Positions 15,222 to 63,036 of a stretch of 64,000 nt of DNA are shown here, one piece after another (position 1 is the stretch's first letter; each line of letters opens with the position of its first letter). The DNA is taken from positions 620,001 to 684,000 of the forward strand of contig WHVD01000036.1 in the NCBI GenBank assembly GCA_015178975.1, given 5' to 3'. The notes under the pieces are model-generated. The model made no database searches. It was given only the letters and a program-made list of their open reading frames with translations, and was not told where the DNA came from. The stretch comes from Hysterangium stoloniferum (Eukaryota; Basidiomycota; Agaricomycetes; Hysterangiales; Hysterangiaceae). The translations under genes and the position numbers were made by a program.

Positions 15222-16490
15222 CATTGGTTGTAGATCACGGTTATGCCAAGTTCCTAGATGGAAAGAAAGAAGATACTTACCTGAAAATTGTGAGGAAATC
15301 TTACGATAATTCTTCAATGATTCCCTGTGAGTTCTTCATCCCTCCCCTTGAGATACAACTGAGCAGTCAAATAGCATTATCATCTGAATCATCCTTTGAT
15401 TGGTCAGATGTGAACATTCCTGACTCTAGTATCGTTGAGAGAGTACACTATGGCTCTCATAATGGCGGTAAGCACCACAGGTGAATGAGGATCTCACACT
15501 CACTAACGTAGTTTGGATGGGCTAGATCTGAACAACATCACCCAGGGACCCACCAAGTCACACAGCCTCAAGAGACAACGGGAGGACGACAACCCCAGGT
15601 CCGAGCCGCCAAAGCGGAAAAGGATGACCTCACCTCCGACTGTCTCTCCAAACCACAATCCGGCACTTTCCGGGAAGATAAAAGTGGACGATAATGACGA
15701 TGAGTATGTTCCAAAATACTCATCTCACCGGCATCCATCAGACATCGCATCCTCCCAACCAACATCAAGAAGTGCAAAACGACAACGCATCGATAGCAGC
15801 GATCGTTGTCGTTCAGATCAAGACGATGGTGCAATTGAGAAGGATCATACACAATTCCTCATTATGATCCTTCTCAATTGCACCATCGTCTTGATCTGAA
15901 CGACAACGATCGCTGCTATCGATGCGTTGTCGTTTTGCACTTCTTGATGTTGGTTGGGAGGATGCGATGTCTGATGGATGCCGGTGAGATGAGTATTTTG
16001 GAACATACTCATCGTCATTATCGTCCACTTTTATCTTCCCGGAAAGTGCCGGATTGTGGTTTGGAGAGACAGTCGGAGGTGAGGTCATCCTTTTCCGCTT
16101 TGGCGGCTCGGACCTGGGGTTGTCGTCCTCCCGTTGTCTCTTGAGGCTGTGTGACTTGGTGGGTCCCTGGGTGATGTTGTTCAGATCTAGCCCATCCAAA
16201 CTACGTTAGTGAGTGTGAGATCCTCATTCACCTGTGGTGCTTACCGCCATTATGAGAGCCATAGTGTACTCTCTCAACGATACTAGAGTCAGGAATGTTC
16301 ACATCTGACCAATCAAAGGATGATTCAGATGATAATGCTATTTGACTGCTCAGTTGTATCTCAAGGGGAGGGATGAAGAACTCACAGGGAATCATTGAAG
16401 AATTATCGTAAGATTTCCTCACAATTTGCAGGTGAGTATCGTCTGTCGTTCCATCTAGGAACTTGGAATAACCGTGATCTACAACCAATG
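15222..16490. repeat. Near-perfect inverted repeat, 627-bp arms, 15-bp spacer
   Basis: The left arm 15222-15848 is the reverse complement of the right arm 15864-16490, separated by 15 nt (15849-15863). By eye the only differences are about six substitutions, all within the outer 65 bp (15245-15285 against the mirrored positions); the inner 560 bp appear identical. The arms hold exons 3 and 4 of the gene annotated at 15864-16969, so the left arm is an inverted partial copy. The outer boundary falls 12 nt upstream of the exon 3 acceptor. There are no transposon ends or target duplication. It is a true palindromic duplication or a fold-back assembly or amplification artefact. Confidence 0.9.
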
Positions 16491-20348: not shown

Positions 20349-23023
20349 TGTTAAAAAGTAGCCCCTATTATCATTGTTACTGTGGTCTGTTTACCACCTA
20401 TTACACCTGGATTTATAAGCATATTAGCCCTGGTGTACATATGTGTACCCCCGGGCTAATTTGCCCCCTTATTGCGTTGGGCCTCTTCCACGGATAATAC
20501 CGTGGATCTGGGGGAAAAAATCAATAAAAGTTAATAAAAATCAATACAACTAAGATAACAAAACGTTCCTTACTTTTACTACAACACTTTGTAGTCTCAA
20601 GACCGTGGGAGTCCTATCCTCAATCCTTCACTTGCCGTCACCTCCATCCGCTTACCGGCAACATCACCTCCCGTCGTCACGGCGCTGCCCTTCGGCAACG
20701 TTCCTGTGCGTCATACTGCTGCGCTCATCGTCAGTGACAATGAGCTCGTGCATCGCCTTCCTGGCCTCTCCAGAATGGCGCGCTCAGCGCATTTCGTGTT
20801 TCTATATTAGCTATTAGTTTAGACATAATATATACTTGACAACTAAACCAAATAAACCAAATAATGCTATTCTTTAAGTACTTCTAATAAAAACTATAAA
20901 TTCATGCTGAGCAGGAATTATCACGTTCCTCCACTTACTGGCAACATCACCTCCCGTCGTCATGGCGCTGCCCTTCACGAATGTTCCTACGCGCCATACT
21001 ACTGCGCTCGTCGTCAGTGACGATGAGCTCACGCCTCGCCTTCCTGGCCTCTCCAGAATGGCATACTCAACGCATTTCGTGTTTCTATATATTAGCTATC
21101 AGCTTAGACATAATATATACTTGACAACTAAACAAAATAAATCAAATAATGTTGTTCTTTAAGTACTTTCCTACGGGCCATACTACTGTGCTCGTCATCA
21201 CTGACAACAAGCTCACGCCTCGCCTTCCTGGCCTCTCCAGAATGGCGCACTCAACGCATTTCGTGTTTCTATATATTAGCTATCATTTTAGACATAATAT
21301 ATACTTGACAACTAAATGAAACAATGTTGTTCTTTAAGCACTTCTAATAAAGATTATAAATTCATGCTGAGCAGTTATTATATTATTTGAATTAAACTAG
21401 GTCTATTAAAATTATTCCATATGCAAAATGTGTTTTTTGTGGATATCATATTGCGAGGTATTGTCATGGTTCACTGAACCTTTCATTTACCCCTGAGTAT
21501 TATTCCTTTCTTTATAGGAAAAGTCACATAAATATTAACTTAACTTTATATACCAGTAATTACACCTGATATTTTTCACAGGAAGAAATGTTCATCCTAT
21601 TCTTCTCTTGTCGACCTATAATTTCAATGACTTTATTAGTGTACCTCTGCTCTTGATTGAATGTAACAAGTTATTCATTGAGTTTAATATGACCTGACAC
21701 TTTAGCAACATACAAAATTCAAGGCAAGAGTCCGGTGTAGACAATCATCACTATACTTACATATTTGACATGAGTCATCCAACAGTCTTACAGTCCTACT
21801 CTACTCACAGGGCACATTGATAGATACCAAATATATGCTCATTTCTAGATTTGGCATCTTTTATATATCACTGTGAGTGACTACTCACTTGTTAGTGAAG
21901 TACTTTATTGCATACCTTTTAGATTGGAATGTTTGGCTTATCATGTCATGGACTTACATATGTACCATACTGTGCTCAGTGAGCATAGCCATGTGAGAGC
22001 TCTTTGAATACATACCTCACAATATGATATCCACAAAAAACACATTTTGCATATGGAATAATTTTAGTAGACCTAGTTTAATTCAAATAATATAATAACT
22101 GCTCAGCATGCATTTATAATCTTTATTAGAAGTGCTTAAAGAACAACATTGTTTCATTTAGTTGTCAAGTATATATTATGTAGCTAATATATAGAAACAC
22201 GAAATACATTGAGTGCGCCATTCTGGAGAGGCCAGGAAGGCGAGGCGTGAGCTCGTCGTCACTGACGACGAGCGCAGTAGTATGGCGCGTAGTAACATTC
22301 GCGAAGGGCAGCGCCGTGACGACGGGAGGTGATGTTGCCAGTAAGTGGAGGAACGTGATAATTCCTGCTCAGCATGAATTTATAGTTTTTATTAGAAGTA
22401 CTTAAAGAATAGCATTATTTGGTTTATTTGGTTTAGTTGTCAAGTATATATTATGTCTAAACTAATAGCTAATATAGAAACACGAAATGCGCTGAGCACG
22501 CCATTCTGGAGAGGCCAGGAAGGCGATGCGCGAGCTCATTGTCACTGACGATGAGCGCAGCAGTATGACGCACAGGAATGTTGCCGAAGGGCAGCGCCGT
22601 GACGACGGGAGGTGATGTTGCCGGTAAGCGGATGGAGGTGACGGCAAGTGAAGGATTGAGGATAGGACTCCCACGGTCTTGAGACTACAAAGTGTTGTAG
22701 TAAAAGTAAGGAACGTTTTGTTATCTTAGTTGCATTGATTTTTATTAACTTTTATTGATTTTTTCCCCCAGATCCACGGTATTATCCGTGGAAGAGGCCC
22801 AACGCAATAAGGGGGCAAATTAGCCCGGGGGTACACATATGTACACCAGGGCTAATATGCTTATAAATCCAGGTGTAATAGGTGCTGTTTACACATTGTT
22901 AGTTTTTATAACTCCGCCCTAACCGAACTACATATTGTATATACATGAAATAAATAATCACTAAGTATGTGTCACATGATAAAAGAACAAAGGGAATATG
23001 TGCGGTGTCTTTGTTCCTCAACA
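20349..23023 (-). repeat. Copia 3' LTR, interrupted by the fold-back element
   Basis: The LTR consists of 20349-20394 and 22893-23023 (46 + 131 = 177 bp, the same length as the other LTR). The fold-back insert 20395-22884 and one 8-bp duplication lie between. The internal side next to 23023 is purine-rich on the coding strand, as expected for a polypurine tract. Confidence 0.9.
20395..22884. mobile_element. Fold-back (long inverted repeat) element, hAT-like target duplication
   Basis: The 2490-bp element starts CACCTATTACACCTGG and ends with its reverse complement, flanked by a perfect 8-bp duplication CTGTTTAC (20387-20394 and 22885-22892). Eight bases is the size used by hAT transposases. 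The arms are long: about 20395-21459 on the left and 22012-22884 on the right. Each has internal direct repeats of about 200-280 bp (cores near 20640-20880, 20940-21165 and 21170-21345; mirrored near 22080-22330 and 22370-22640), so the arms differ in copy number. The middle 552 bp (21460-22011) is AT-rich and encodes nothing recognisable. There is no transposase, so it is non-autonomous. Short frames such as 20605-20817 and its mirror 22462-22674 are repeat by-products. Confidence 0.85.
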
Positions 23024-52690: not shown

Positions 52691-52993
52691 TCTTACTAAA
52701 TGGGCTGAATACATGTTAGGACTGGGAAACCTGCCCGGACCTGGAACCCATCCTATAGGTATCCGGCTCTCTATATCATGTGAACTGGCCACTGGACTTT
52801 GCCCAGACATTCCACACCCCCTTTTCCCAATCTGTCTTTGCCTGTTTGATATCTGTCTCAGTCTGCCCCTTGTTTCCCAATCCATTAGATATATGGTTTA
52901 TTGTCATATTGTATGCCTTGTTATGTCTTTTTGTCTCTCTAGATATGTAGTACAATCATCTACAAGTTTCATTTTGCCTTCCCATCTCAAGGA
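52691..52993. other. Short unassigned stretch
   Basis: The sequence is C/T-rich on the plus strand, with frames on both strands and no motif. It separates the tandem block from the LTR. Confidence 0.4.
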
Positions 52994-54182
52994 TGAGGAT
53001 TATCTCATAAGGTTCTCTTAATTTTCTTTGAATTATTTAATATTTTCTTGAATTTATTGTATTTTTATTATATTTCTATTGTGAAATATAAGGCCTAGTT
53101 CCTTGTAACTTGACATAATAATAGCATATATGAGCTCATATAATGCTATTATATCTTAAGTAATTTATTATAATTTTTAACTAATTATTTATATTTTATT
53201 TACTTAGTTATTGCTTCTCGGCATGTTGCTTGCTCCTATATATGTATTTTTGGAGTCACATGACTTATTACTTAAGTCAACTTCGAGTCATTGGCATTTG
53301 ATTCCGACCTGGATCTTGGCCTCTGAACCTTTGAGTTCAGGCTTAGATTGAAGCCCTTGTCTCAGACTGGGGAGTCATAGGATCAAAAAGGGGTAATAAA
53401 TAGTTGGACATGATATCATTACTGACTCAGTGATGATGTCATAAAATAATGAAATAGTTAAATAATTAGTTATCAAAATGTATATAAGGAGGGCCAGAAA
53501 TCCACAATAAATCATCTTATCACACACATATTTTAGTGCACAGCCCAGAAACTTATCTTATCATAGGACAATAATAGCCTTAGTCTGATACACTTACTGC
53601 AAGCACCTACACTTGCAGAATCTAGAACTCTTTGTCAGCACTCTTGAACTTAGCTAATCATCTAAGTTCCCCCAGCCTCACAGCTACCCTTTAGGCTTAT
53701 TAAATACATAATAAACCTAATAAGTATTTTATTGAAATCTCTGCCAACACTTAGATTATTCAAGGCCCATACCTAAGTTAGTGAATTAATCAAGTACAAG
53801 CACACAAGAAATCCAATGCAAATTGTTTTCTCTGTTAATAAAATATTTAACTCCTTGTTAAATATCTATTAATAGTCACAAATAAGCACACAAGAAACCG
53901 AAGCTCTTATATCAAGTCTCTGCCAAGTTACTGTGCATATATTCAGCTTCCAGCCCCTATTCTCAAGGAATAGTTCTTTTATTTGCTAAAAGAGTCATAT
54001 ATTGTTCTATTTAACCTTTCAATAATCCAAATAAGCATTGATTTTAGTTGTTTAAGCTTAATAGTGCAATAATTAATCTATCAGTATTTAAATTACTGGA
54101 CCTTTGCTTATTTTATTGTTGAAGCTCTGTGACACTATAGCATATACTGAGCTATCTAAAAGAAACCCCTAAATACATTACA
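52994..54182 (+). repeat. Long LTR (solo), copy A
   Basis: A segment of about 1.19 kb, TG..CA, is closely related to copy B at 56246-57505. It has a TATA-like TATATAAGG at 53481-53489 followed by a plausible transcript start region, as expected for an LTR promoter. No matching flanking duplication is visible, and its right end abuts the remaining part of the chromovirus 3' LTR. No internal coding region belongs to it, so it is a solo LTR or a truncated end. Confidence 0.65.
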
Positions 54183-54327
54183 AATAAACAGAGTTTGATT
54201 GCCACAAAAGCATATGTTAGTGTCAGGTGACTGACAGTTTTCCATGTGATGACTTGAGCGATAACTTGAAACATTGATAGGTGGCAATAACCTTGGGGAC
54301 TGCCAGGTTGTGACACAGTCATAACAG
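54183..54327 (-). repeat. Truncated 3' LTR of the chromovirus
   Basis: This 145-bp part corresponds to the first part of the LTR (coding-strand start TGTTATGACTG). It matches 62890-63036 at roughly 85-90% by eye (GATGACTTGAGCGATAACTT is shared exactly). The remainder is missing and replaced by the solo LTR copy A. Confidence 0.8.
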
Positions 54328-54496
54328 TGTCCCCCCATTTGGCTGAAATCCCAAGGAGGCTGAAAATCTAGATTCTGTACGTAAAAACTTGTCAGGTACG
54401 GGTGTGTCAAAATGTCATGTGACCCGGTAAAGATTTACATATAAAAATTTGAGGGGTGCTGGCGCTTGATTTTTTACTTCTCTTCCCTCAACCACC

Positions 54497-55498
54497 ATGA
54501 CCATTGGCTCGGGGTTGAAACCCTTCCCAGTTCAGTTAATGGTCGCTCTCATGTCAGTTCCGAGCGGGCCATCGAGTGCTCAAGAATGTTGTTGCCTTCT
54601 TGAGGAGAAAAGAAAAGCATGCAAGGAGGAGGAGTGTAGGGAGAAGGAGGAGCTGGTGGCCATAGAGGGAGAGGAGAAGAAACTGGCAGTGGAGGAGGCT
54701 GCATGCAAGAACTGGGATGCGGTGCTTGTGAAGAAGAAGCAGTGGGAGGCCAATCAGGTGTGAGAGGAGGAGGCGAAGAAGAGAGGGAAAGGTAAGTCGG
54801 GTTCCCATTTCTTTTGTGACCCTGCTGACATTTCCATAGCGCAAGGCAGTGACGCCTTCAGAGTCCAATGATGAGGAGGATGAGGAGGACGAGGAGGATG
54901 TACTGGGGCCGTCAAGCCCCAAGGTGGGTTCAGTTTCCTCATTTTTAAAATTTCTAATTTGTTTTGTCTTCAATTATAGAAACAAAAACAGGCCCCCAAG
55001 GTGGGGCCTGAAAATAACCCCAAGTGCAACCAGTGCACTAAATGGGGTTGGGACTTGCCATCCACGGGCAAGTGGTCAGGGCCACACTTGTCAAGAGTGT
55101 GCCAACCAAAAGCTTGGGTACTCACGAGTATTCCTGGATGCCAACAGGAATGGGTCCTACCAAGAATGGCAGGCTGATGCTCTAGAAGAGCAAAGCCACC
55201 TCATGTGCACCTACTTCTTGGAGACAACACAGTTCTGGTTTGAAACTCTGCAACAACAAGGTCTGATGACTGAACAACTGTGACTTTTGGGCATGGGGCT
55301 GGAGAAACAAACCAGCACAATTGAGTCGCTCAGGGAGCAACTTGAACAATATTTAGAAGTGCCGAGTTGCAATGGAGTTGGGCCTGGAGTTGGGGTATCA
55401 GGAAAGGTCAGTGAAGAGGTGTCAGTGGCCGTCAGGGAGAGGGAAGGCTTGGAAGCCGGAGAAGAAGGAGAGGTTGTAGAGGAAACCTTTAGGTAGTA
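54497..55498 (+). CDS. Antisense accessory gene of the chromovirus
   Basis: It lies on the plus strand between the 3' LTR and the end of pol, opposite to gag-pol, starting 170 bp from the LTR edge. The beginning MTIGSGLKPFPVQLMVALMS is followed by a charged, coiled-coil-like part (LEEKRKACKEEECREKEELV; AIEGEEKKLAVEEAAC). An acidic part (SESNDEEDEEDEEDVLGPSS) follows, then a Cys-rich region with CNQC and HTCQECANQKLG, suggesting a zinc-binding module. Then come EEQSHLMCTYFLETTQFWFE and SLREQLEQYLEVPS, and an acidic tail. GT..AG-bounded segments of about 48 and 56 nt (54792-54839, 54924-54979) look like introns. This layout resembles the coiled-coil plus Cys-motif hypothetical proteins often found in basidiomycete genomes; that is recollection, not a search. 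The frame is not intact throughout. Confidence 0.5.
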
Positions 55499-55589
55499 AA
55501 AATATAATGGTTTTAAAACAAAGAAACATAGTGTGAAATCATAAGGCATAGTTGGAAAAAGGTTGGGTACCACGTGAGATGACTTATAA

Positions 55590-58330
55590 AGAATTTAGAG
55601 GACCGGGTTTATTTGGATAAGCTTGATGAAACCCTAAAATGATTTCTGATGCATTGCCGAGCTCTGTAGCTAAGATCCATGAGGTTTCTTCATCTGTACC
55701 TTCATAGCCAGCCCATTTAACCAAATAAAGTAACTTGCATGAGTGTCAGTGATTGTCGATTTTAGAGCCTAGGATTTCCAATATCTCGAATTTGGGTTCT
55801 CCATCAATAATCACGGGTGGAGGTGGTGGTTGTATGCAATCCAGTATATTGTTAGCAACATAAGGTTCTAACATAGATACATGAAATACTGGGTGTACTG
55901 CACACATGTTGTCTGGAAGCGGAAGTGTCCATGAAAGCGTGCTGGCTTGTGCTATAACTTCAAAAGGACCTAAATATTTTTCAGAGAGCTTCTTAGAGGT
56001 TCTAGTAGTTCGGAAAAACTCAGCTTTAATGAATACTCAGTCTCCGATCTTGAAATCAGGAGGTGGAAGTTGATTCTTATCTGCAGACCATTGGTATTGT
56101 TCTTGGGCCATTGCAATAGTTTTACGAAGTTCTTGATGTAGCTTGTCAAGGTTTGCAATGAAGTCTTGAGTATGGGTGGATGCGAGATCATGGTCCAGGT
56201 GGATTGCAATATTGGGGTTGTAGCCTTTGTTTGCAAAGAAAGGTGTGAGGTATCAGCCTCATCTCATAATATTCTCTTAATTTTCTGTGAATTATTTAAT
56301 ATTTTCTCGAATTTATTGTATTTTTATTATCTTTTTATTGTGAAATATAAGGCCTTATACCTTTTAACTTTACATAATAATAGCCTATATGAGCTCATAT
56401 AATGCTATTATATCTTATTTATTTTAATATAATTTTTAACTAATTATTTATATTTTATTTACTTAGTTATTGCTTTTCGGCACCTTGCTGCAGGCTGGTC
56501 TGCGCATTTTTGGAGTCACGTGACTTATTAGATAAGCCTCCGGTGTTGGGATATCACACAAGTCATGAATGTGACTGTAATGACTTACTCGAGTCATAAT
56601 TTGATTCCGCCGACTCATCAAATGCTTCCGTCCCGGGACCGTGGCCTTGAACCTTCATGTTCAAGCCAAAGGTTGGAACCCTTGTCTCAGAGAGGGGAAT
56701 CACATGGTAAATAAAGGGTAAAAAATAAGTAGAATATGAGGTCATTATGACCTAAATAATGACCTCATAAAATAAATAAATGGTTAAATATTTAGTTATC
56801 AGAATGTATATAAGGAGGGGCAAGTTTCCAATAAAATCATTTTATCACACACACATTTTACTGCACAGCTCAGAAGCTAATCATCCTAAGGACAATAATA
56901 GCCTTAGTCTGATACACTAACTGCAAGCACCTACACTTGCAGAATCTTGAATCTTTGTCAGCAACTCTTGAACTTAGCTAATCATGTAAGTTCCCCCAGC
57001 CTCACAGCTACCCTTAGGCTTATTAATTACATAATAAACCTAATAAGTATTCATACTGAAATCCCTGCCAATACTAGATTATTCAAGGCCCAGCCCTAAG
57101 TTTGTTGAATTAATCAAGTACAAGCACTCAAATAATCCAACACATATTATTTTCTCTATTAATAAATTATTTAACACTTGTTAAATAACTATTAATAGTC
57201 ACAAATAAGCATGCAAGAATCCGAAGCTTTATATCAAGTCTCTGCTAAGTTACTGTGCATATACTCAGCTTCCAGCCCCTATTATCAAGGAATAGTTCTT
57301 TTATTTGCTAAAAGAGTTATATATTGTTCTATTGAACCTTTCAATAATCAAAATAAGAATTGATTTGAGTTGTTTAAGCTTAATAGCACAGCTCATTAAT
57401 CTATCAGTATTTAAATTCCTGGACCTTTGCTTGTTTTATTGTTGAAGCTCTGTGACACTATAGCATATATTGAGCTATCTAAGAGAAACCCCTGAATACA
57501 TTACAAAAGGTGAAATGCCAGTAGTGGCATTCAGTGTGTTGTTATATGTGAATTCAGCTAGTGGTAGTAGTGATTTCCAATTACCTTGTTAATAGTTACA
57601 ATAGACACAAATGTATTGTTCCAAGGTTTGATTCATGTGTTTGGTTTGGCTGTCGCCTTCCGGGTGATAACCCAAAGTGAAGTGTAATTTCATGTCTAAT
57701 GCTTTTCCGAGTGACCTAAAGAAATGAGAGACAAACTTGGATCCGTGATCAGATGTGACATGTGATGGAACACTGTGCTTGGAAAATACATGGGTGATGA
57801 ATAATTCGTCTAACTGTACAGATGTTATTGTGTCATATGTTGGAATGAAAATACTTTGCTTTGTGAGCCGATCCACAACAACTAGGATTGCTGTATGATC
57901 TTTGGATGCCAGTAGGTGCTTGATGAAATCCATAGAAATCGAGTTCCAGGGTTTTTCCAGGATTGGTAATTGTTTCAGTAGGCCATATGGTTTGTGTTGC
58001 TGTGATTTAGAGCGTAAACATGTTGTACAGGATTTTGAATAGTGCTTAGCGAAATCTCAGATGCCGGGCCATGTATATTCTCTTCTAATGAGCAAAAGAG
58101 TTTTATTGAGGCCAAAATGTCCCGAGGTCGGGTGGTCATGCTTATGTTGTAGGATTTGCAGCCGAAGGGTGTCGGAATCTGGTATATAGATATGGTTGTC
58201 AAGTCTAATGAAACCTTGTGAGTCTAGTGACCATCGGGGCTGATCGGGATTGGACAGCTTATTGAGATGTGCTTTGCTGACTGGGTCTAATGGAATTCCT
58301 GATAGTATATCTTGATGTAACTTTTTGGTA
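55590..58330 (-). pseudogene. Chromovirus integrase and chromodomain part
   Basis: Zinc-binding HH-CC region with NHIYIPDSDTLRLQILQHKH and CTTCLRSKSQQHKPYG (about 58200-57990). The core carries MDFIKHLLASKDHTAILVVV, THVFSKHSVPSHVTSDHGSK and GYHPEGDSQTKHMNQTLEQY (57933-57589). The C-terminal region lies left of the inserted solo LTR (56236-55970), and a chromodomain-like YLVKWAGYEGTDEETSW at about 55745-55640 with HPVFHVS upstream places the element among the chromoviruses. Fossil; broken and interrupted by copy B of the solo LTR. Confidence 0.85.
56246..57505 (+). repeat. Long solo LTR, copy B, inserted in the integrase
   Basis: A 1260-bp segment, TGAGGTATC..ACATTACA, is flanked by the direct repeat AAAGGTG (56239-56245 and 57506-57512). 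It is closely related to copy A and has TATATAAGG at 56807-56815. A dyad TGAGGTCATTATGACCTA..AATGACCTCA lies near 56738-56768. Orientation is opposite to the chromovirus. The clean insertion into integrase sequence shows that it came after the chromovirus. Confidence 0.85.
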
Positions 58331-59530
58331 TCTATAAGGATAACACTTCACAAGACTGGATGAATGAGGTAAGTGGCTCGGATAGATGTGAACAGTTGTT
58401 CCGATGAAAACATAGGCTTGAAATTATGCAGATTAACTGTGGTGTAGTCACTACTCCCCTCTTTAGGATAGATGTCCCATCATCTAGTCATAGCATTAGG
58501 GTTTTCCACTAAGGTGGCCGGGACAGAAGCGGATTACCATATTGAAAGTAAAGAGGAGTTTGTACCATCAGGCTTTCCGACGGGTGAGTTTTGTGGTAGA
58601 AAAGTAAACCAATTTTTTGTGGTCGGTAATAACATCTATCGGGTGAGCCGATCTTCCAAATAATGTTGCCATGTTTTGAAAGCTTCAAATATCGCGAGTA
58701 GTTCTCTATCATGAACATCGTAGTTGAGTTCAGGTGCCGAAAAAGTGTGAGACAAAAAAGCTACTGGGTGGACTTCATCATCGGTGTCCAGAATGGACAA
58801 TATCACAGGGAGTGCATAATATGAGGCATCAGTTTCCACAATGAGTTGAACATCAGGCTTCCAGTGTAAACGCACTTTTCAATTCTTGGAATGCCGTTTG
58901 GCATTCTTCAGAGAAATTCCATGGGGTGTCTTTACGAGTAAGATGAGTGAGCGGAATGGTAATTTTTGAGTAGTTGTGAATGAAATGACAATAAAAATTG
59001 GTGAAGCCTACAAAGGACTGAATGTCCTTAACCTTTTGGGGTTCTGGCCAATCTTGAATAACTTGAATTTTAGTGTTGTCCATGCAGAGACCATCAGGTC
59101 CCATCATGAAACCTAAATATTCAACTGTGTTGACATCAAAAGAACATTTTTTCCCATTCACAAAAAGACCACGTTTTTGGAGTCTTCAGAGAACTTCACA
59201 GACATGTTCATCATGAAGTGTAGGATCTTCGGAGAATATGAGGATGTCATCTAAGTACACAATGACAAAGACATTGAGGAGGTCAGAAAAGATGTTGTTG
59301 ATAAAATATTGAAAGACTGACAGAGCAACAGTGAGGCCAAAAGGCATCACTAACCATTTGAAGGAGCCATAGCAAGTGCGAAAAGCTGTTTTCCATTTGT
59401 CGCCTTCGGCGATCTGAACCAAATCATATCCATGTTTAAGATCTATCTTTGTATAGATTCAGGCCTTCTGAGGGGCATCAAGTAAATTGGAGATTAGTGG
59501 TAACAGGTACTTATCTTTTTGGGTGATCAC
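58331..59530 (-). pseudogene. Chromovirus reverse transcriptase and RNase H part
   Basis: RT motifs: [20 protein letters not shown] and [16 protein letters not shown] (59422-59186), then VEYLGFMMGPDGLCMDNTKI and VKDIQSFVGFTNFYCHFIHN (59161-58853). RNase H follows with VETDASYYALPVILS, HPVAFLSHTFSAPELNYDVH and DRELLAIFEAFKTWQHYLE (58875-58636). Typical Ty3 order and motifs. Fossil; broken. Confidence 0.9.
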
Positions 59531-59532
59531 AT

Positions 59533-61550
59533 TTAGTCCTCAAAAGTCAATGCAAAGCCGAATTCTGGAACACCTTTCAAATCTGCAATCAGTTCGGCCA
59601 CCAGGGATGCAAAGTGACTGGTGACTTCATCAACTTTAAGATTGACTGTAAATGCTCGGGAGCCATCCAACTTGATGGCTCTCATAAAAGCTATGGCATT
59701 TATTAGAGAGATGGGCAGCAGAGAGCTTGGATTTGCCACGGGGGCTGGAGATGCTGTAGAGGCCATATTTGCCAGAACAGGTGGAAACGGACCAGTCATA
59801 TTGGGTGCCGACAGGGTTCGGAAATGGATACTGCCCAATACCCAATCAATCAACAGATTGTAGTGGGTGAGCCAGTTATGTCCTAGGACCATGGAGCAGC
59901 TTGAGTCCAACTGTGTTACAAAAAATGTAACTGTCTGAAAGGTTCCACATGGGAACCGAAGTCGGAGTTTGCAGGCTTGCGAGATTATGGAGTATGAGGT
60001 ACCATAAAAGAGTTGGAGTGGAATGAGATCTATTGCATAAGTTTTTAACTGATTTTTTCGGGAAAAACTTGTATCTATAAAACAATGGGTTGAACCTGAA
60101 TCTACGAGAGCTTGAAAAGAAAGACTCCCAAGAGGTTCTGAAGTAAGATTTATGAACAAAGAATTGGGATCATACAGAGCAGATGTTTTAAGATGACAAT
60201 TTTCTGGTGTGCGGGGAGATTCAACGCAACTGTCCAACTGCACAGAATCCAGAGAGTTGCTTAATCTTTTTTTGACTCGGCAGCCAGCTTAGCTGGTTGT
60301 GAAGTCGTGGCCATATTGGCCGATCGAGCTTTTGTGGCCTTCGGGCATGCGGCGACTCAGTGTCCAGGATCTGCACACAACAAACAAAGATTGTTGTCCA
60401 TTTGATGTTGCTTTTCCTGTGGTAGGAGCTTGCCATCGGAGCTGAGTTTGCTAGTTAAGTCAGGTTTGTCTTTGTCTTGAGACTTATTCGACTGTTTGCC
60501 CTTGCCTTTTTTGTCATTAAAACCCTTGTTGTTGGATTTCTTATTGGAGTTTGAGTTACCACTATTGTTGGTGTTTTGATTACCAGACTTGTTGGCATTC
60601 TTATTGTCCCATGATTTTTTGTCCTATGGGTTTTTGCAACTGATTTCCAAACATTGTTCCCAGTATCAGGCATCTGTGTTTTGGGCCTTTAGATGCATGA
60701 GGGGGAGAGTCTTCAGTTTGCCAGTGTCTCCTTTGGAAACTTTGTATTTGAGGCGAGATGGGAGGCCGGAGTAAAACTGGTAACAAAGGGCCAAATCACC
60801 CCAGTTGCAACGTGTGGCGAGGTTGTTGAAGTTGATGATGTAGTCGGTGATGCGCTGGGTGTCTTTCATTTTGAGATTAGAAAGCATGGTTTTGGCATCA
60901 CCAGTTTGGTCATAGGGACCAAAGTTTGTTTTGAGTTCCTCAACAAAGGCATCCCAATTGTGAAGCCAATTGGGATCTTGGGAGGTGAGGACAGAGAATG
61001 TGGGTTCAAACCAGGCTGCTACAGAATCCTTAAGGTACGAGAGTGCAAAGTTTACCTTTCAGTTATCCATTGCAAAAGCAGCTGGGCAGTCCCGAAAGTT
61101 GAATTGACATTGTATAAGAAATGTCAGCAATTTCTTCGGGTTTGAGCTGGTAAATGGTTTGGGTGTGTTGACTCAGGTTTGCCCAGGTTCTTATTCCTTG
61201 GTATTGTTTTTAAGAAAATCATTAAGGGATCCTAGGGTACCAGAGAACAATTCCCATGTCTTGTTGGGGTCAAAATCCGGTTTTTGTTTCATGGACTTCT
61301 TAGGACCACTACCCTGAGGTATGGGTTGGTTGCCATCCTCAGGTTCGGGTCCCAGAGCTGATTGATTGTTAATCTCTTCAGGTGCTTCAGGTTCGGGTGC
61401 TTCAGTAACGTCTTCAGCGTCACTGGTAATTTCCACAAAGCGGGATTCTTTGGAGGTTTCTGGTTGTGGTGTTCTCCAGAGTAGCTCAGGCTGTATACAG
61501 GAATGGAGACTTGAGAATGGAAGATTCTGCTTTGCCACTTGGCTTGCCAT
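59533..61550 (-). pseudogene. Chromovirus gag and protease part
   Basis: The gag N-terminal segment starts MASQVAKQNLPFSSLHSCIQ (61550) and is Pro/Glu-rich. The gag core shows KMKDTQRITDYIINFNNLAT and YQFYSGLPSRLKYKVSKGDT (60887-60666). A CCHC knuckle region, C-x2-C-x4-H-x4-C, lies near 60400-60340. The protease carries [20 protein letters not shown] and [17 protein letters not shown] (60243-59533). Fossil; broken. Confidence 0.85.
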
Positions 61551-61606
61551 CTTTTTTTCTCAGAGGCATGATTAATGGAAAATGCGAGTGTGAAATCAGA
61601 ACATAC

Positions 61607-63036
61607 TGTTAAGAACTGAAAACTGACTAATGTCAGTAGGCTGACAGGGACCGATCAGAAGGACTTGGCTTCAGCTTATATGCTGCACCCTCACAAATAG
61701 CTGTTGGGTGTCCTTAGATTTCAGACAGGTGAAGACTAATCCTAATGAGTACCTCTCGGCAAGTTACCGATCAGGACCAAAGGATAAGTCAAGTGTCAGG
61801 CCAAGGGGTCGGGGATTGAGAGTGGGCAAGCGCACATGAAGGCGGATAGTGGGATATTTAGTATAGGACTTCTAGAGATGTATGTAAGAGGGTATTCTGA
61901 GTCAATATTCTGATTGCCTAGTAACTACAACTAAAGTGGGTTCATATTCAAGTATTCAGCATCTAGAAAATATTAACTAGGAGAAGAGTGGAAAACATTA
62001 TTGACAAATAAGCTTGACTAGGAATGGGAAGGTTACGATAAGTTTGGAGGCAATGAAATAACTGAGAGTGGGATTACGAGAAAAGGAAATAGTCTGAGGG
62101 TTACGAGTATACATATGTATATAGGCATATGTGAAACATAGACTAGAACAGATCATCATAATAAAAGGGGACGTAGCAGAGTTTAACCAGGGAGGGTGTT
62201 TATAATTACTATAATCTCAAATATTTACTAATAAAAGTCTTATTTTTACAAAACTCCATCTTTAAATAGTGATATCTATTCTGAAACAATTATATCATCA
62301 AAAAACAACCATCAGAAATAGTTCTCCATATTACATCTTATACAACCCATAGTTATTTAACAAATTCTATTGTATATAATTTCCTTCCTTTTACAGATGT
62401 CTACTAATACTTTTATTAGTACTTTGCCTTTTAAAAGCTGTAATGTAGTAATTTCCTAGTAAAATATATGAGATGTCATTGGAAATTTTTCATCCTATGG
62501 CCTTCTTTATTAAGTGAAATTACCTATATATTCTGGGTATGTTGAATCAAGTAGAAATCTGTTCAGATTGACAGATCCATTCCGAAGTAATACATATGTA
62601 TTTAGAGGTGCCAATGATATACATATGCATGGAATGGACTATCTAAAGGTATCTACTTTTTAAAAGTATTAGTGTTTCAAACTACTAATTTTTTTATTGT
62701 CTACTCGTGTCCAGAAAGATTCTTTAGTTTGTAATGTATGAGAGAGTTTAAAACTTTTTGAAAGTTTTAAAAACCAAACTATGTTTGAATCACATCCCAG
62801 ATGTTTAAATGACCTTTAGAGTATATTAGAATTTGGTATACTTAATAGTTTTCAGATATCCTCCCAGATAGTACGCGTATATTTTGATGGGGCATAAATG
62901 GAGTTTGATTGCCATGAAAGCATATGTCAGCATCGGGTGACTGACGGTTTCCAATGTGATGACTTGAGCGATAACTTGAAACGTCGATAGGTGGCAATAA
63001 CCTCAGGGACCGTCAGGTTGCGACACAGTCGTAACA
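61607..63036 (-). repeat. Chromovirus 5' LTR with nested insert
   Basis: LTR sequence occupies 61607-62190 and 62865-63036, split by the insert 62191-62864. Without the insert it would be about 750 bp, close to the 742-bp solo LTR at 30139-30880. It contains the module ACTTGGCTTCAGCTTATATG shared with the other Ty3 LTRs here. Confidence 0.85.
62191..62864. mobile_element. 674-bp non-autonomous element in the LTR
   Basis: The insert is recognisable because the surrounding LTR is known. It is flanked by CAG (62188-62190 and 62865-62867) and begins GGAGG and ends CCTCC, a 5-bp inverted end. The first part resembles 32285-32399, and the part 62460-62860 resembles 2841-3235, including the first helicase codons region. 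So it is a miniature derivative of the AT-rich, Helitron-associated repeat family. But Helitrons make no target duplication, so the mechanism is open. Confidence 0.6.

What the first reader, a model, noticed from the sequence alone, without database searches (positions are those of the whole stretch)
54497..55498. Chromovirus carries an antisense gene with a coiled-coil and Cys-motif protein
Between the end of pol and the 3' LTR, on the opposite strand, lies a gene-like unit of about 1 kb with two intron-like segments. It encodes a charged helical part, an acidic linker, paired CxxC motifs and an acidic C-terminus. Extra antisense genes in this position are known from some plant Ty3 elements. 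In a basidiomycete element this would be a cargo or regulatory gene expressed from the LTR side. Seen: position, orientation, motifs. Inferred: that it belongs to the element rather than being trapped host DNA.
Basis: partly seen in the sequence, partly recalled or inferred. Interest (0 to 1): 0.7.

Follow-up and report, generated by a model that had tools for sequence, protein, structure and literature searches.

The report
Antisense zinc-protein gene in fungal retrotransposon
A jumping element of a fungus carries an extra gene, read backwards relative to its other genes and cut by two introns, that natural selection has kept as a protein with a motif resembling fungal zinc-cluster gene switches; it probably helps the element control its own activity.

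Summary
Window 54497-55496 (+) is a broken copy of a two-intron gene lying tail-to-tail with the chromovirus pol, about 170 bp from the 3' LTR edge. It belongs to the element: 124 of the 150 best-scoring pol C-term places in the same genome have it antisense, median 107 bp away, none same-strand. Four copies with open frames encode 284-298 aa: charged region, acidic linker, C-x2-C-x6-C-x10-C-x2-C-x6-C, a 70-residue helix, acidic tail. dN/dS is 0.11-0.16 against the most distant family read, while introns drift, so it is coding and selected.

Best reading: a DNA-binding accessory protein of Zn2Cys6-like build, expressed from its own TATA promoter, that regulates the element through the LTR U3, which holds CGG inverted repeats in some copies. 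Coding, location and selection are shown; expression, zinc and DNA binding are inferred (PF00172 stays below cut-off). Gene plus the start of U3 look exchanged as one block between families.

Antisense genes here are known in plant Ty3 elements and Botrytis Boty (brtn). The Zn2Cys6-like product and two introns appear new within a limited literature view.

The parts
54440..54446 (+). TATA box of the antisense gene, 57 nt before ATG
   Evidence: TATAAAA at -57 or -56 in 29 of 33 loci
54497..54791 (+). exon 1 (N-terminal stretch and charged region); degenerate here, in-frame TGA 54761-54763
   Evidence: open homologues
54792..54839 (+). intron 1 (GT..AG)
   Evidence: GT-AG boundaries of open copies
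54840..54923 (+). exon 2 (acidic, Ser/Pro-rich linker)
54924..54979 (+). intron 2 (GT..AG)
54980..55496 (+). exon 3 (six-Cys cluster, long helix, acidic tail); frame-shifted here, TGA inside
54327..54345 (-). polypurine tract beside the 3' LTR
   Evidence: tract of the type GGATTTCGGCCAAATGGGGGGATAC before the LTR start in the copies
54184..54326 (-). start of 3' LTR (U3), truncated by a nested LTR
   Evidence: direct repeat with 62894-63036, 87%
61607..63036 (-). 5' LTR, enlarged by an insertion
60290..61560 (-). gag region (CCHC-like knuckle near 60360; broken), read by eye only
59533..60288 (-). protease domain
   Evidence: RVP_2 2e-6
59186..59458 (-). reverse transcriptase piece
   Evidence: RVT_1 1.7e-20
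57589..58056 (-). integrase core piece
   Evidence: rve 1.5e-7, 32.1 bits against cut-off 32.6
55584..56036 (-). Tf2-1-like SH3 and chromodomain end of pol; stop 55584-55586
   Evidence: SH3_Tf2-1 2.8e-16; Chromo 2.7e-5 (24.4 bits, cut-off 25.1) in relative L037
56252..57507 (.). foreign LTR inserted in the integrase region (not part of the element)

Best explanation
The feature is one decayed copy of an accessory gene that a Tf1/Ty3-type chromovirus carries antisense between pol and the 3' LTR. Transcription starts at a TATA box inside the element; two introns are spliced (possible because the sense genomic RNA carries only their complement); the product is a nuclear protein of about 290 aa with a charged region, an acidic linker, a Zn2Cys6-like six-cysteine cluster, a long coiled-coil-type helix and an acidic tail. 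I think it dimerises, binds CGG inverted repeats at the start of U3 in both LTRs, and regulates the sense LTR promoter and its own promoter. Shown: gene structure, location, copy number, purifying selection, cysteine pattern, conserved TATA. Inferred: expression, splicing in the cell, nuclear site, zinc binding, dimerisation, DNA binding, regulation.
For: Antisense location in 124 of 150 pol places, 0 same-strand. Open CDS with two phase-0 GT-AG introns in L037, L038, L045 and L047. dN/dS 0.11-0.16 for the three comparisons with L047 and 0.11-0.12 for L037 and L038 against L045; L037-L047 differences by codon position 56, 64, 152; introns 52-62% identical to L047's. Five cysteines invariant in 12 of 12 rows and the sixth in 11 of 12. 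Profile comparison with six Zn2Cys6 stretches from four loci of the same genome aligns all six Cys, P 0.00036, probability 37%; score 27.8 against a maximum of 17.4 in 60 full column shuffles; 1 of 60 shuffles that keep the Cys in place reaches it. The order Cys6 cluster - short linker - helix 55-124 (pLDDT 94-98 over residues 61-120) resembles Gal4-type binding domains (recalled). CGG inverted repeats at U3 positions +26 and +82/83 (family B) and +94 (L047, L019, L022, L023). Gene and the first ~110 bp of U3 diverge together between L037/L039 and L047 while the last ~390 bp of LTR read stay 87-95% identical.
Against: PF00172 is never above its cut-off in this gene (best 17.9 bits against 21; weak hit in 4 of 12 members; 1 of 83 PF00172 places of the genome overlaps a known gene copy, at 16.9 bits). 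The AlphaFold model of the Cys cluster is below pLDDT 50. The CGG motif was noticed after looking; the looser form CGG-N0..8-CCG is found in only 14 of 28 U3 starts (not in the window copy) and is not clearly enriched over shuffles (fractions 0.14, 0.09, 0.01, 0.06 and 0.60 in five copies); the tighter TCGG-N2..6-CCGA gives 0 to 0.001 in four related B copies and 0.049 in L047. dN/dS of the closest pair L037-L038 is 0.32, and 0.67 in exon 3, on few changes. No expression data. C14 (L048), with a 1286-aa pol frame, has lost nearly all of exon 3, so not every copy needs the gene in cis. 26 of 150 pol places have no listed gene, 7 of them a subfamily I could not read.
Confidence: 0.5

Rival explanations
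1. The protein acts after transcription: a nuclear or chromatin factor that helps the pre-integration complex into the nucleus or to target sites, binding DNA or Gag through the Cys cluster and coiled coil, without regulating the LTR.
For: Basic stretches next to acidic ones and a long helix; the review of plant antisense ORFs suggests nuclear roles (passages of PMC7264820).
Against: Own TATA box on the opposite strand and CGG repeats in U3 of some copies fit regulation better; no integrase- or Gag-associated family among the Pfam matches.
Confidence: 0.2
2. The protein is an anti-silencing factor: it binds the LTR and removes or blocks cytosine methylation or heterochromatin on its own family (as recalled for plant VANC proteins).
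For: Older copies look hit at CpG: 179 of 393 informative variable columns are transitions in CG-to-TG/CA context, which suggests methylation of the family; sequence-specific binding to U3 would be needed.
Against: No direct sign; no enzymatic domain among the Pfam matches.
Confidence: 0.15
3. The antisense transcript, not the protein, matters: it pairs with genomic RNA and tunes silencing.
For: Antisense transcription across the 3' part of a multicopy element would make double-stranded RNA; proposed for plant elements (passages of PMC7264820).
Against: dN/dS 0.11-0.16, third-position excess and conserved splice sites show that the protein is selected.
Confidence: 0.07
4. A host gene fragment captured by one element or lying there by chance.
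For: None found beyond the decayed window copy.
Against: Same place in 124 of 150 pol places; LTR edge beside it in 33 of 33 loci; a family with 65% identical exon 3 carries it too.
Confidence: 0.02

Closest known systems
brtn of Boty, Botrytis cinerea Ty3/gypsy (Zhao et al. 2011, seen only as citation and in passages of PMC7264820 and PMC8365987)
   Same: Fungal LTR retrotransposon with an additional antisense gene between pol and 3' LTR
Antisense aORFs of plant elements: Grande gene23, RIRE2, Retand TRP28 (PMC7264820 section 5 and passages; PMC11963269 passages)
   Same: Position, orientation, presence in most copies, own promoter (Grande), nuclear or DNA-binding suggestion
   Different: Here a chromovirus; no PF04195 (TRP28) match; two introns; six-Cys cluster
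Fungal Zn2Cys6 (Gal4-type) transcription factors, PF00172 (features recalled)
   Same: Six-Cys spacing (with a 10-residue loop), basic residues in lobe 1, cluster followed by linker and long helix, acidic tail
   Different: Below the Pfam cut-off; cluster lies mid-protein (about residue 144 of 292), not near the N-terminus; element-borne
Deltaretrovirus antisense proteins (HBZ of HTLV-1; PMC11963269 passages, details recalled)
   Same: Antisense gene read from the 3' LTR side, nuclear regulator
   Different: bZIP protein in an animal retrovirus; no sequence relation was tested

Membership tests
Antisense additional ORF between pol and 3' LTR (aORF-3R) | Antisense, between pol stop and 3' LTR | tested here: met
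Antisense additional ORF between pol and 3' LTR (aORF-3R) | Present in most copies of the family and conserved | tested here: met
   124 of the 150 best-scoring pol places (of 3315 candidates); dN/dS 0.11-0.16
Antisense additional ORF between pol and 3' LTR (aORF-3R) | Transcribed antisense from its own promoter | not testable with these tools
   Only a conserved TATA box, 29 of 33
Zn2Cys6 binuclear cluster (PF00172) | C-x2-C-x6-C-x5..16-C-x2-C-x6..8-C (pattern recalled) | tested here: met
Zn2Cys6 binuclear cluster (PF00172) | Score above the curated Pfam cut-off (21 bits) | tested here: not met
   best 17.9 bits; 4 of 12 members weakly
Zn2Cys6 binuclear cluster (PF00172) | Profile similarity beyond Cys spacing | tested here: inconclusive
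   hhalign probability 37%; 1 of 60 Cys-kept shuffles reaches the score
Zn2Cys6 binuclear cluster (PF00172) | Binuclear zinc fold | tested here: inconclusive
   cluster pLDDT below 50
Zn2Cys6 binuclear cluster (PF00172) | Zinc and CGG-repeat binding | not testable with these tools
   CGG repeats in 14 of 28 U3 starts; binding untested
Chromovirus (Ty3 with chromodomain) | PR-RT-RH-IN order with a C-terminal chromodomain | tested here: met
   Chromo E 2.7e-5, 24.4 bits, just under the 25.1 cut-off
Tf1-like self-priming LTR element | PBS complementary to the 5' end of the RNA (11 nt, recalled) | tested here: inconclusive
   AATCAGAATAT in the LTR of 28 of 33 loci, 32-33 nt after a TATA-like word in nearly all of them, is complementary to the start of GTATATTCTGATT, exact in 7 of the 9 loci where the sequence after a 5' LTR was found; RNA start not measured
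TRP28 (PF04195) antisense proteins of Retand | PF04195 domain | tested here: not met
   PF04195 not among the matches of 12 exon-3 rows nor of exon 1 of L026 and L037, at E<=5
brtn of Boty | Sequence homology | not tested
   sequence not held

The most novel reading that the evidence does not exclude
A fungal chromovirus carries its own Zn2Cys6-like transcription factor together with its target sites in the neighbouring U3. One set of U3 sites sits between the sense LTR promoter and the antisense gene's promoter and makes a two-way switch. Protein and target site travel as one exchangeable block between element lineages, and the spacing of the palindrome differs between lineages (TCGG-N2-CCGA against TCGG-N4-CCGA): a Tax/HBZ-like regulatory system evolved independently in fungi.
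Probability: 0.3. Interest if true: 0.75.

Novelty: new variant of a known kind. Interest (0 to 1): 0.5.

Why it matters
Antisense accessory genes of plant elements and of Boty have no known function (PMC7264820, section 5 and passages). Here the candidate protein has a recognisable, testable domain type and candidate target sites in the same element, in a genome with many near-identical copies open in exon 3. That makes the question 'what do antisense genes of LTR elements do' directly testable by binding and reporter assays. The introns also suggest why such genes sit antisense: only there can spliced introns survive the RNA stage. If a fungal element carries its own regulator, it could also be a source of host transcription-factor genes.

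Tried and rejected
Trapped host gene: rejected. Chance ORF: rejected. Known domain other than Zn cluster: the other Pfam matches (Calici_MSP, GEMIN8, DUF6310, ANG-1 and others) are all below cut-off; NCBIfam none for exon 3 and two far below cut-off for exon 1; PDB by sequence none for L011 exon 3 and three at E 0.43 or worse for L037 exon 3. Relatives outside this genome: the viral-contig scan with A2 gave 15 pattern matches and no confirmed relative; no relatives of this genome are held; genome contigs (prokaryotes) was not scanned. A structure search was not run because the cluster model is below pLDDT 50. Subfamily D (pol 86% identical, 7 of the 26 misses): no gene at those places in the capped lists, region not read, so open. 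Tree conflict for module exchange: the gene tree groups B with B' (support 99) and has C on a branch of 0.88; the LTR-rest tree separates A from B/B'/C (support 100) with C on a branch of 0.11, but C's exact place there is weakly supported (31-36), and the U3-start tree is too short and saturated (C branch 5.4). Branch lengths, more than topology, carry the argument.

Paper searches (all 10 used); titles and starts of abstracts seen. No listed title or abstract start spoke of a Zn2Cys6 antisense gene in an LTR element. Novikova et al. [quoted passage not shown]

Full report
What is there. The window is G000:C290:620001-684000 of an unnamed 111-Mb assembly. At 54497-55496 on the + strand lies a gene-like unit; on the - strand lie the remains of a chromovirus: gag (read by eye), protease, reverse transcriptase, integrase pieces and a Tf2-1-like SH3 domain. 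The pol stop (55584-55586) and the gene stop (55494-55496) face each other. The gene's ATG is about 170 bp from the LTR edge at 54326. Another LTR is inserted in the integrase region (56252-57507), and a second copy of it ends at 54184, where the element's 3' LTR is cut. The window copy is broken: an in-frame TGA in exon 1, frame shifts, a TGA in exon 3 and a lost sixth cysteine.

It is repeated with its element. The DNA search scored 40 of 304 candidates; apart from the window itself the long matches are 77-98% identical. Protein searches with exon 3 of L011, L037, L047 and L040 gave 713, 537, 648 and 370 candidates, of which 150 were scored each time. Of the 150 scored places for the pol C-terminus (3315 candidates), 124 have a gene match on the opposite strand within 1.5 kb, median 107 bp, range 45-713; none has one on the same strand within 2.5 kb. 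The gene list for this count was all 150 rows, 32 of the 151, 16 and 4. The 26 misses include 7 of a subfamily whose pol is 86% identical and which I could not read. One read miss, C14 (L048), has a 1286-aa pol frame and kept exon 1 but lost the end of exon 2 and nearly all of exon 3. Conversely, 97 of 150 gene places and 25 of the 32 taken have a pol in the capped pol list; the others are undecided by that list. Of 33 loci inspected directly (chosen by gene or pol similarity, so not a random sample), 33 have exon 1 and an LTR U3 edge before it (pattern allowing 6 substitutions in 21), 32 have exon 3, and 29 have the pol C-terminus downstream on the other strand; of the four without, two were fetched too short to show it.

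It is a coding, spliced, selected gene. Four copies (L037, L038, L045, L047) are open over three exons with two phase-0 GT-AG introns of 49-56 nt (48-53 in L047) and encode 292, 284, 294 and 298 aa; of the seven copies spliced, L039 and L046 hold one in-frame stop each and L041's exon 3 does not join cleanly. Between L047 (family C) and the other three, dN/dS is 0.11-0.16 with dS 1.5-2.2, near saturation; L037 and L038 against L045 give 0.12 and 0.11; the closest pair, L037-L038, gives 0.32 (exon 3 alone 0.67) on 34 changes. Differences fall at codon positions 56/64/152 (L037-L047). Introns are 52-62% identical to L047's over aligned sites. A TATA box lies 56-57 nt before the ATG in 29 of 33 loci; the exceptions are L012, L028, L045 and L047, and in L047 CATATAAG was seen by eye.

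The protein. An N-terminal conserved stretch is followed by a charged region (23 K/R and 20 D/E in 76 residues of L037), an acidic Ser/Pro linker, the cluster CNRCTKRGRTCHPRTNGRGRTCQECADQKLGC, a predicted helix at exon-3 residues 55-124 (pLDDT 94-98 over 61-120) and an acidic tail. Five Cys are invariant in 12 of 12 aligned rows and the sixth in 11 of 12. The spacing is that of Zn2Cys6 clusters (recalled). PF00172 matches only below its cut-off; of 83 PF00172 places in the genome, one at 16.9 bits overlaps a listed gene copy, C203:26101. Profile comparison with six Zn2Cys6 stretches from four loci of the same genome (three from L030) aligns all six Cys, scoring above all 60 full column shuffles and 59 of 60 shuffles that keep the Cys in place. 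So: works like, membership unproven.

The LTR. LTRs are about 745 bp, TG...CA, with a conserved polypurine tract. AATCAGAATAT is found in LTRs of 28 of 33 loci, 32-33 nt after a TATA-like word in nearly all of them, and is complementary over 11 nt to the sequence found after the 5' LTR in 9 loci (exact in 7), which would fit Tf1-type self-priming (the Tf1 comparison is recalled). The start of U3 holds CGG inverted repeats: TCGG-N2-CCGA twice in L037, L038, L039, L046 and L048, and TCGG-N4-CCGA in L047; the looser CGG-N0..8-CCG occurs in 14 of 28 U3 starts extracted and not in the window copy (5 of the 33 loci were missed by the extraction). The motif was chosen after looking. In shuffles of five copies the tighter form is reached in 0, 0.001, 0 and 0 (B copies, related to each other) and 0.049 (L047) of cases; the looser form in 0.14, 0.09, 0.01, 0.06 and 0.60, so it is not clearly enriched.

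Module exchange. Between L037 or L039 and L047, identity is 0.47-0.76 across the pol tail, gene and promoter, 0.83-0.86 around the polypurine tract, 0.59-0.61 in the first ~110 bp of U3, 0.73-0.76 in the next ~80 bp, and 0.87-0.95 in the rest of the LTR read, while the pol C-terminus of family C is 96% identical in amino acids to L037's. L037 against L026, a copy of the window's family, shows no such step: 0.67-0.83 in the gene, 0.69 in U3, 0.77-0.84 in the rest. Because synonymous sites and introns diverged too, faster protein evolution alone does not explain it; exchange of a gene-plus-U3 block, for example by template switching, is the simplest reading. Since gene and U3 are neighbours, one block would carry both whether or not they work together. 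Trees agree in branch length, less so in resolved topology.

Mechanism and rivals. I rate autoregulation of the LTR by this protein at 0.5. That gene, introns, position and selection are real I rate above 0.95. Rivals are import/targeting factor, anti-silencing factor, regulatory antisense RNA and trapped host gene.

Literature. Antisense ORFs between pol and the 3' LTR are known in plant elements and in Boty of Botrytis (PMC7264820: section 5 and passages), Retand TRP28 proteins may bind DNA (PMC11963269: passages), and brtn is mentioned in PMC8365987 (passages). Novikova et al. 2010 (PMC2864245: section 5 and passages) mention an additional ORF in a figure legend. The listings (titles and abstract starts) showed no report of a Zn2Cys6-like antisense gene; that library lacks most subscription papers.

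Noticed in passing
window 56252-57507 and 52993-54184: Two copies (77-98% per matching stretch) of an LTR of another family; the first sits inside the integrase region with AAGGTG on both sides, the second ends where the element's 3' LTR is cut.
   Followed up: partly
L009 (C344:1-9857): A 98% identical copy of the window gene shows the same change of sequence at the 3' LTR cut as the window, so it may be a haplotig or segmental duplicate; the pol C-terminus was not detected there.
   Followed up: no
LTRs of 28 of 33 loci; sequence after the 5' LTR in 9 loci: A TATA-like word, then 32-33 nt later AATCAGAATAT, complementary over 11 nt to the sequence after the 5' LTR: looks like Tf1-type self-priming.
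   Followed up: partly
21 gene copies of the window family: 331 of 393 informative variable columns are transitions, 179 of them in CG-to-TG/CA context; stops in listed copies are mostly TGA: CpG-type decay of old copies.
   Followed up: partly
L018 4379-8473 and L014 4112-8473, in pol-sense (reverse-complement) coordinates of each locus: Copies with only about 4.1-4.4 kb between LTRs that keep the gene and pol end: deleted, possibly non-autonomous forms.
   Followed up: no
window 15222-16490 and 20395-22884: Long, nearly perfect inverted repeats (628 nt at 99% with a 13-nt gap; 704 nt at 98%), unexplained.
   Followed up: no
L030 1342-1761 and contigs C56, C115, C209, C37, C533: Zn2Cys6 clusters repeated close together, in L030 more than one in the same frame; PF00172 places bunch this way on several contigs.
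   Followed up: no
L048 about 1460-2001: Flank beyond the LTR reads like a Tc1/mariner transposase gene (recalled resemblance, not tested).
   Followed up: no
G000 C252:32481, C191:75706, C511:306031, C537:4935, C121:123333, C223:1463922, C286:14738: A related subfamily (pol 86% identical, open pol frames of 508-1237 aa) for which no gene match was listed; it may lack the gene or carry another.
   Followed up: partly
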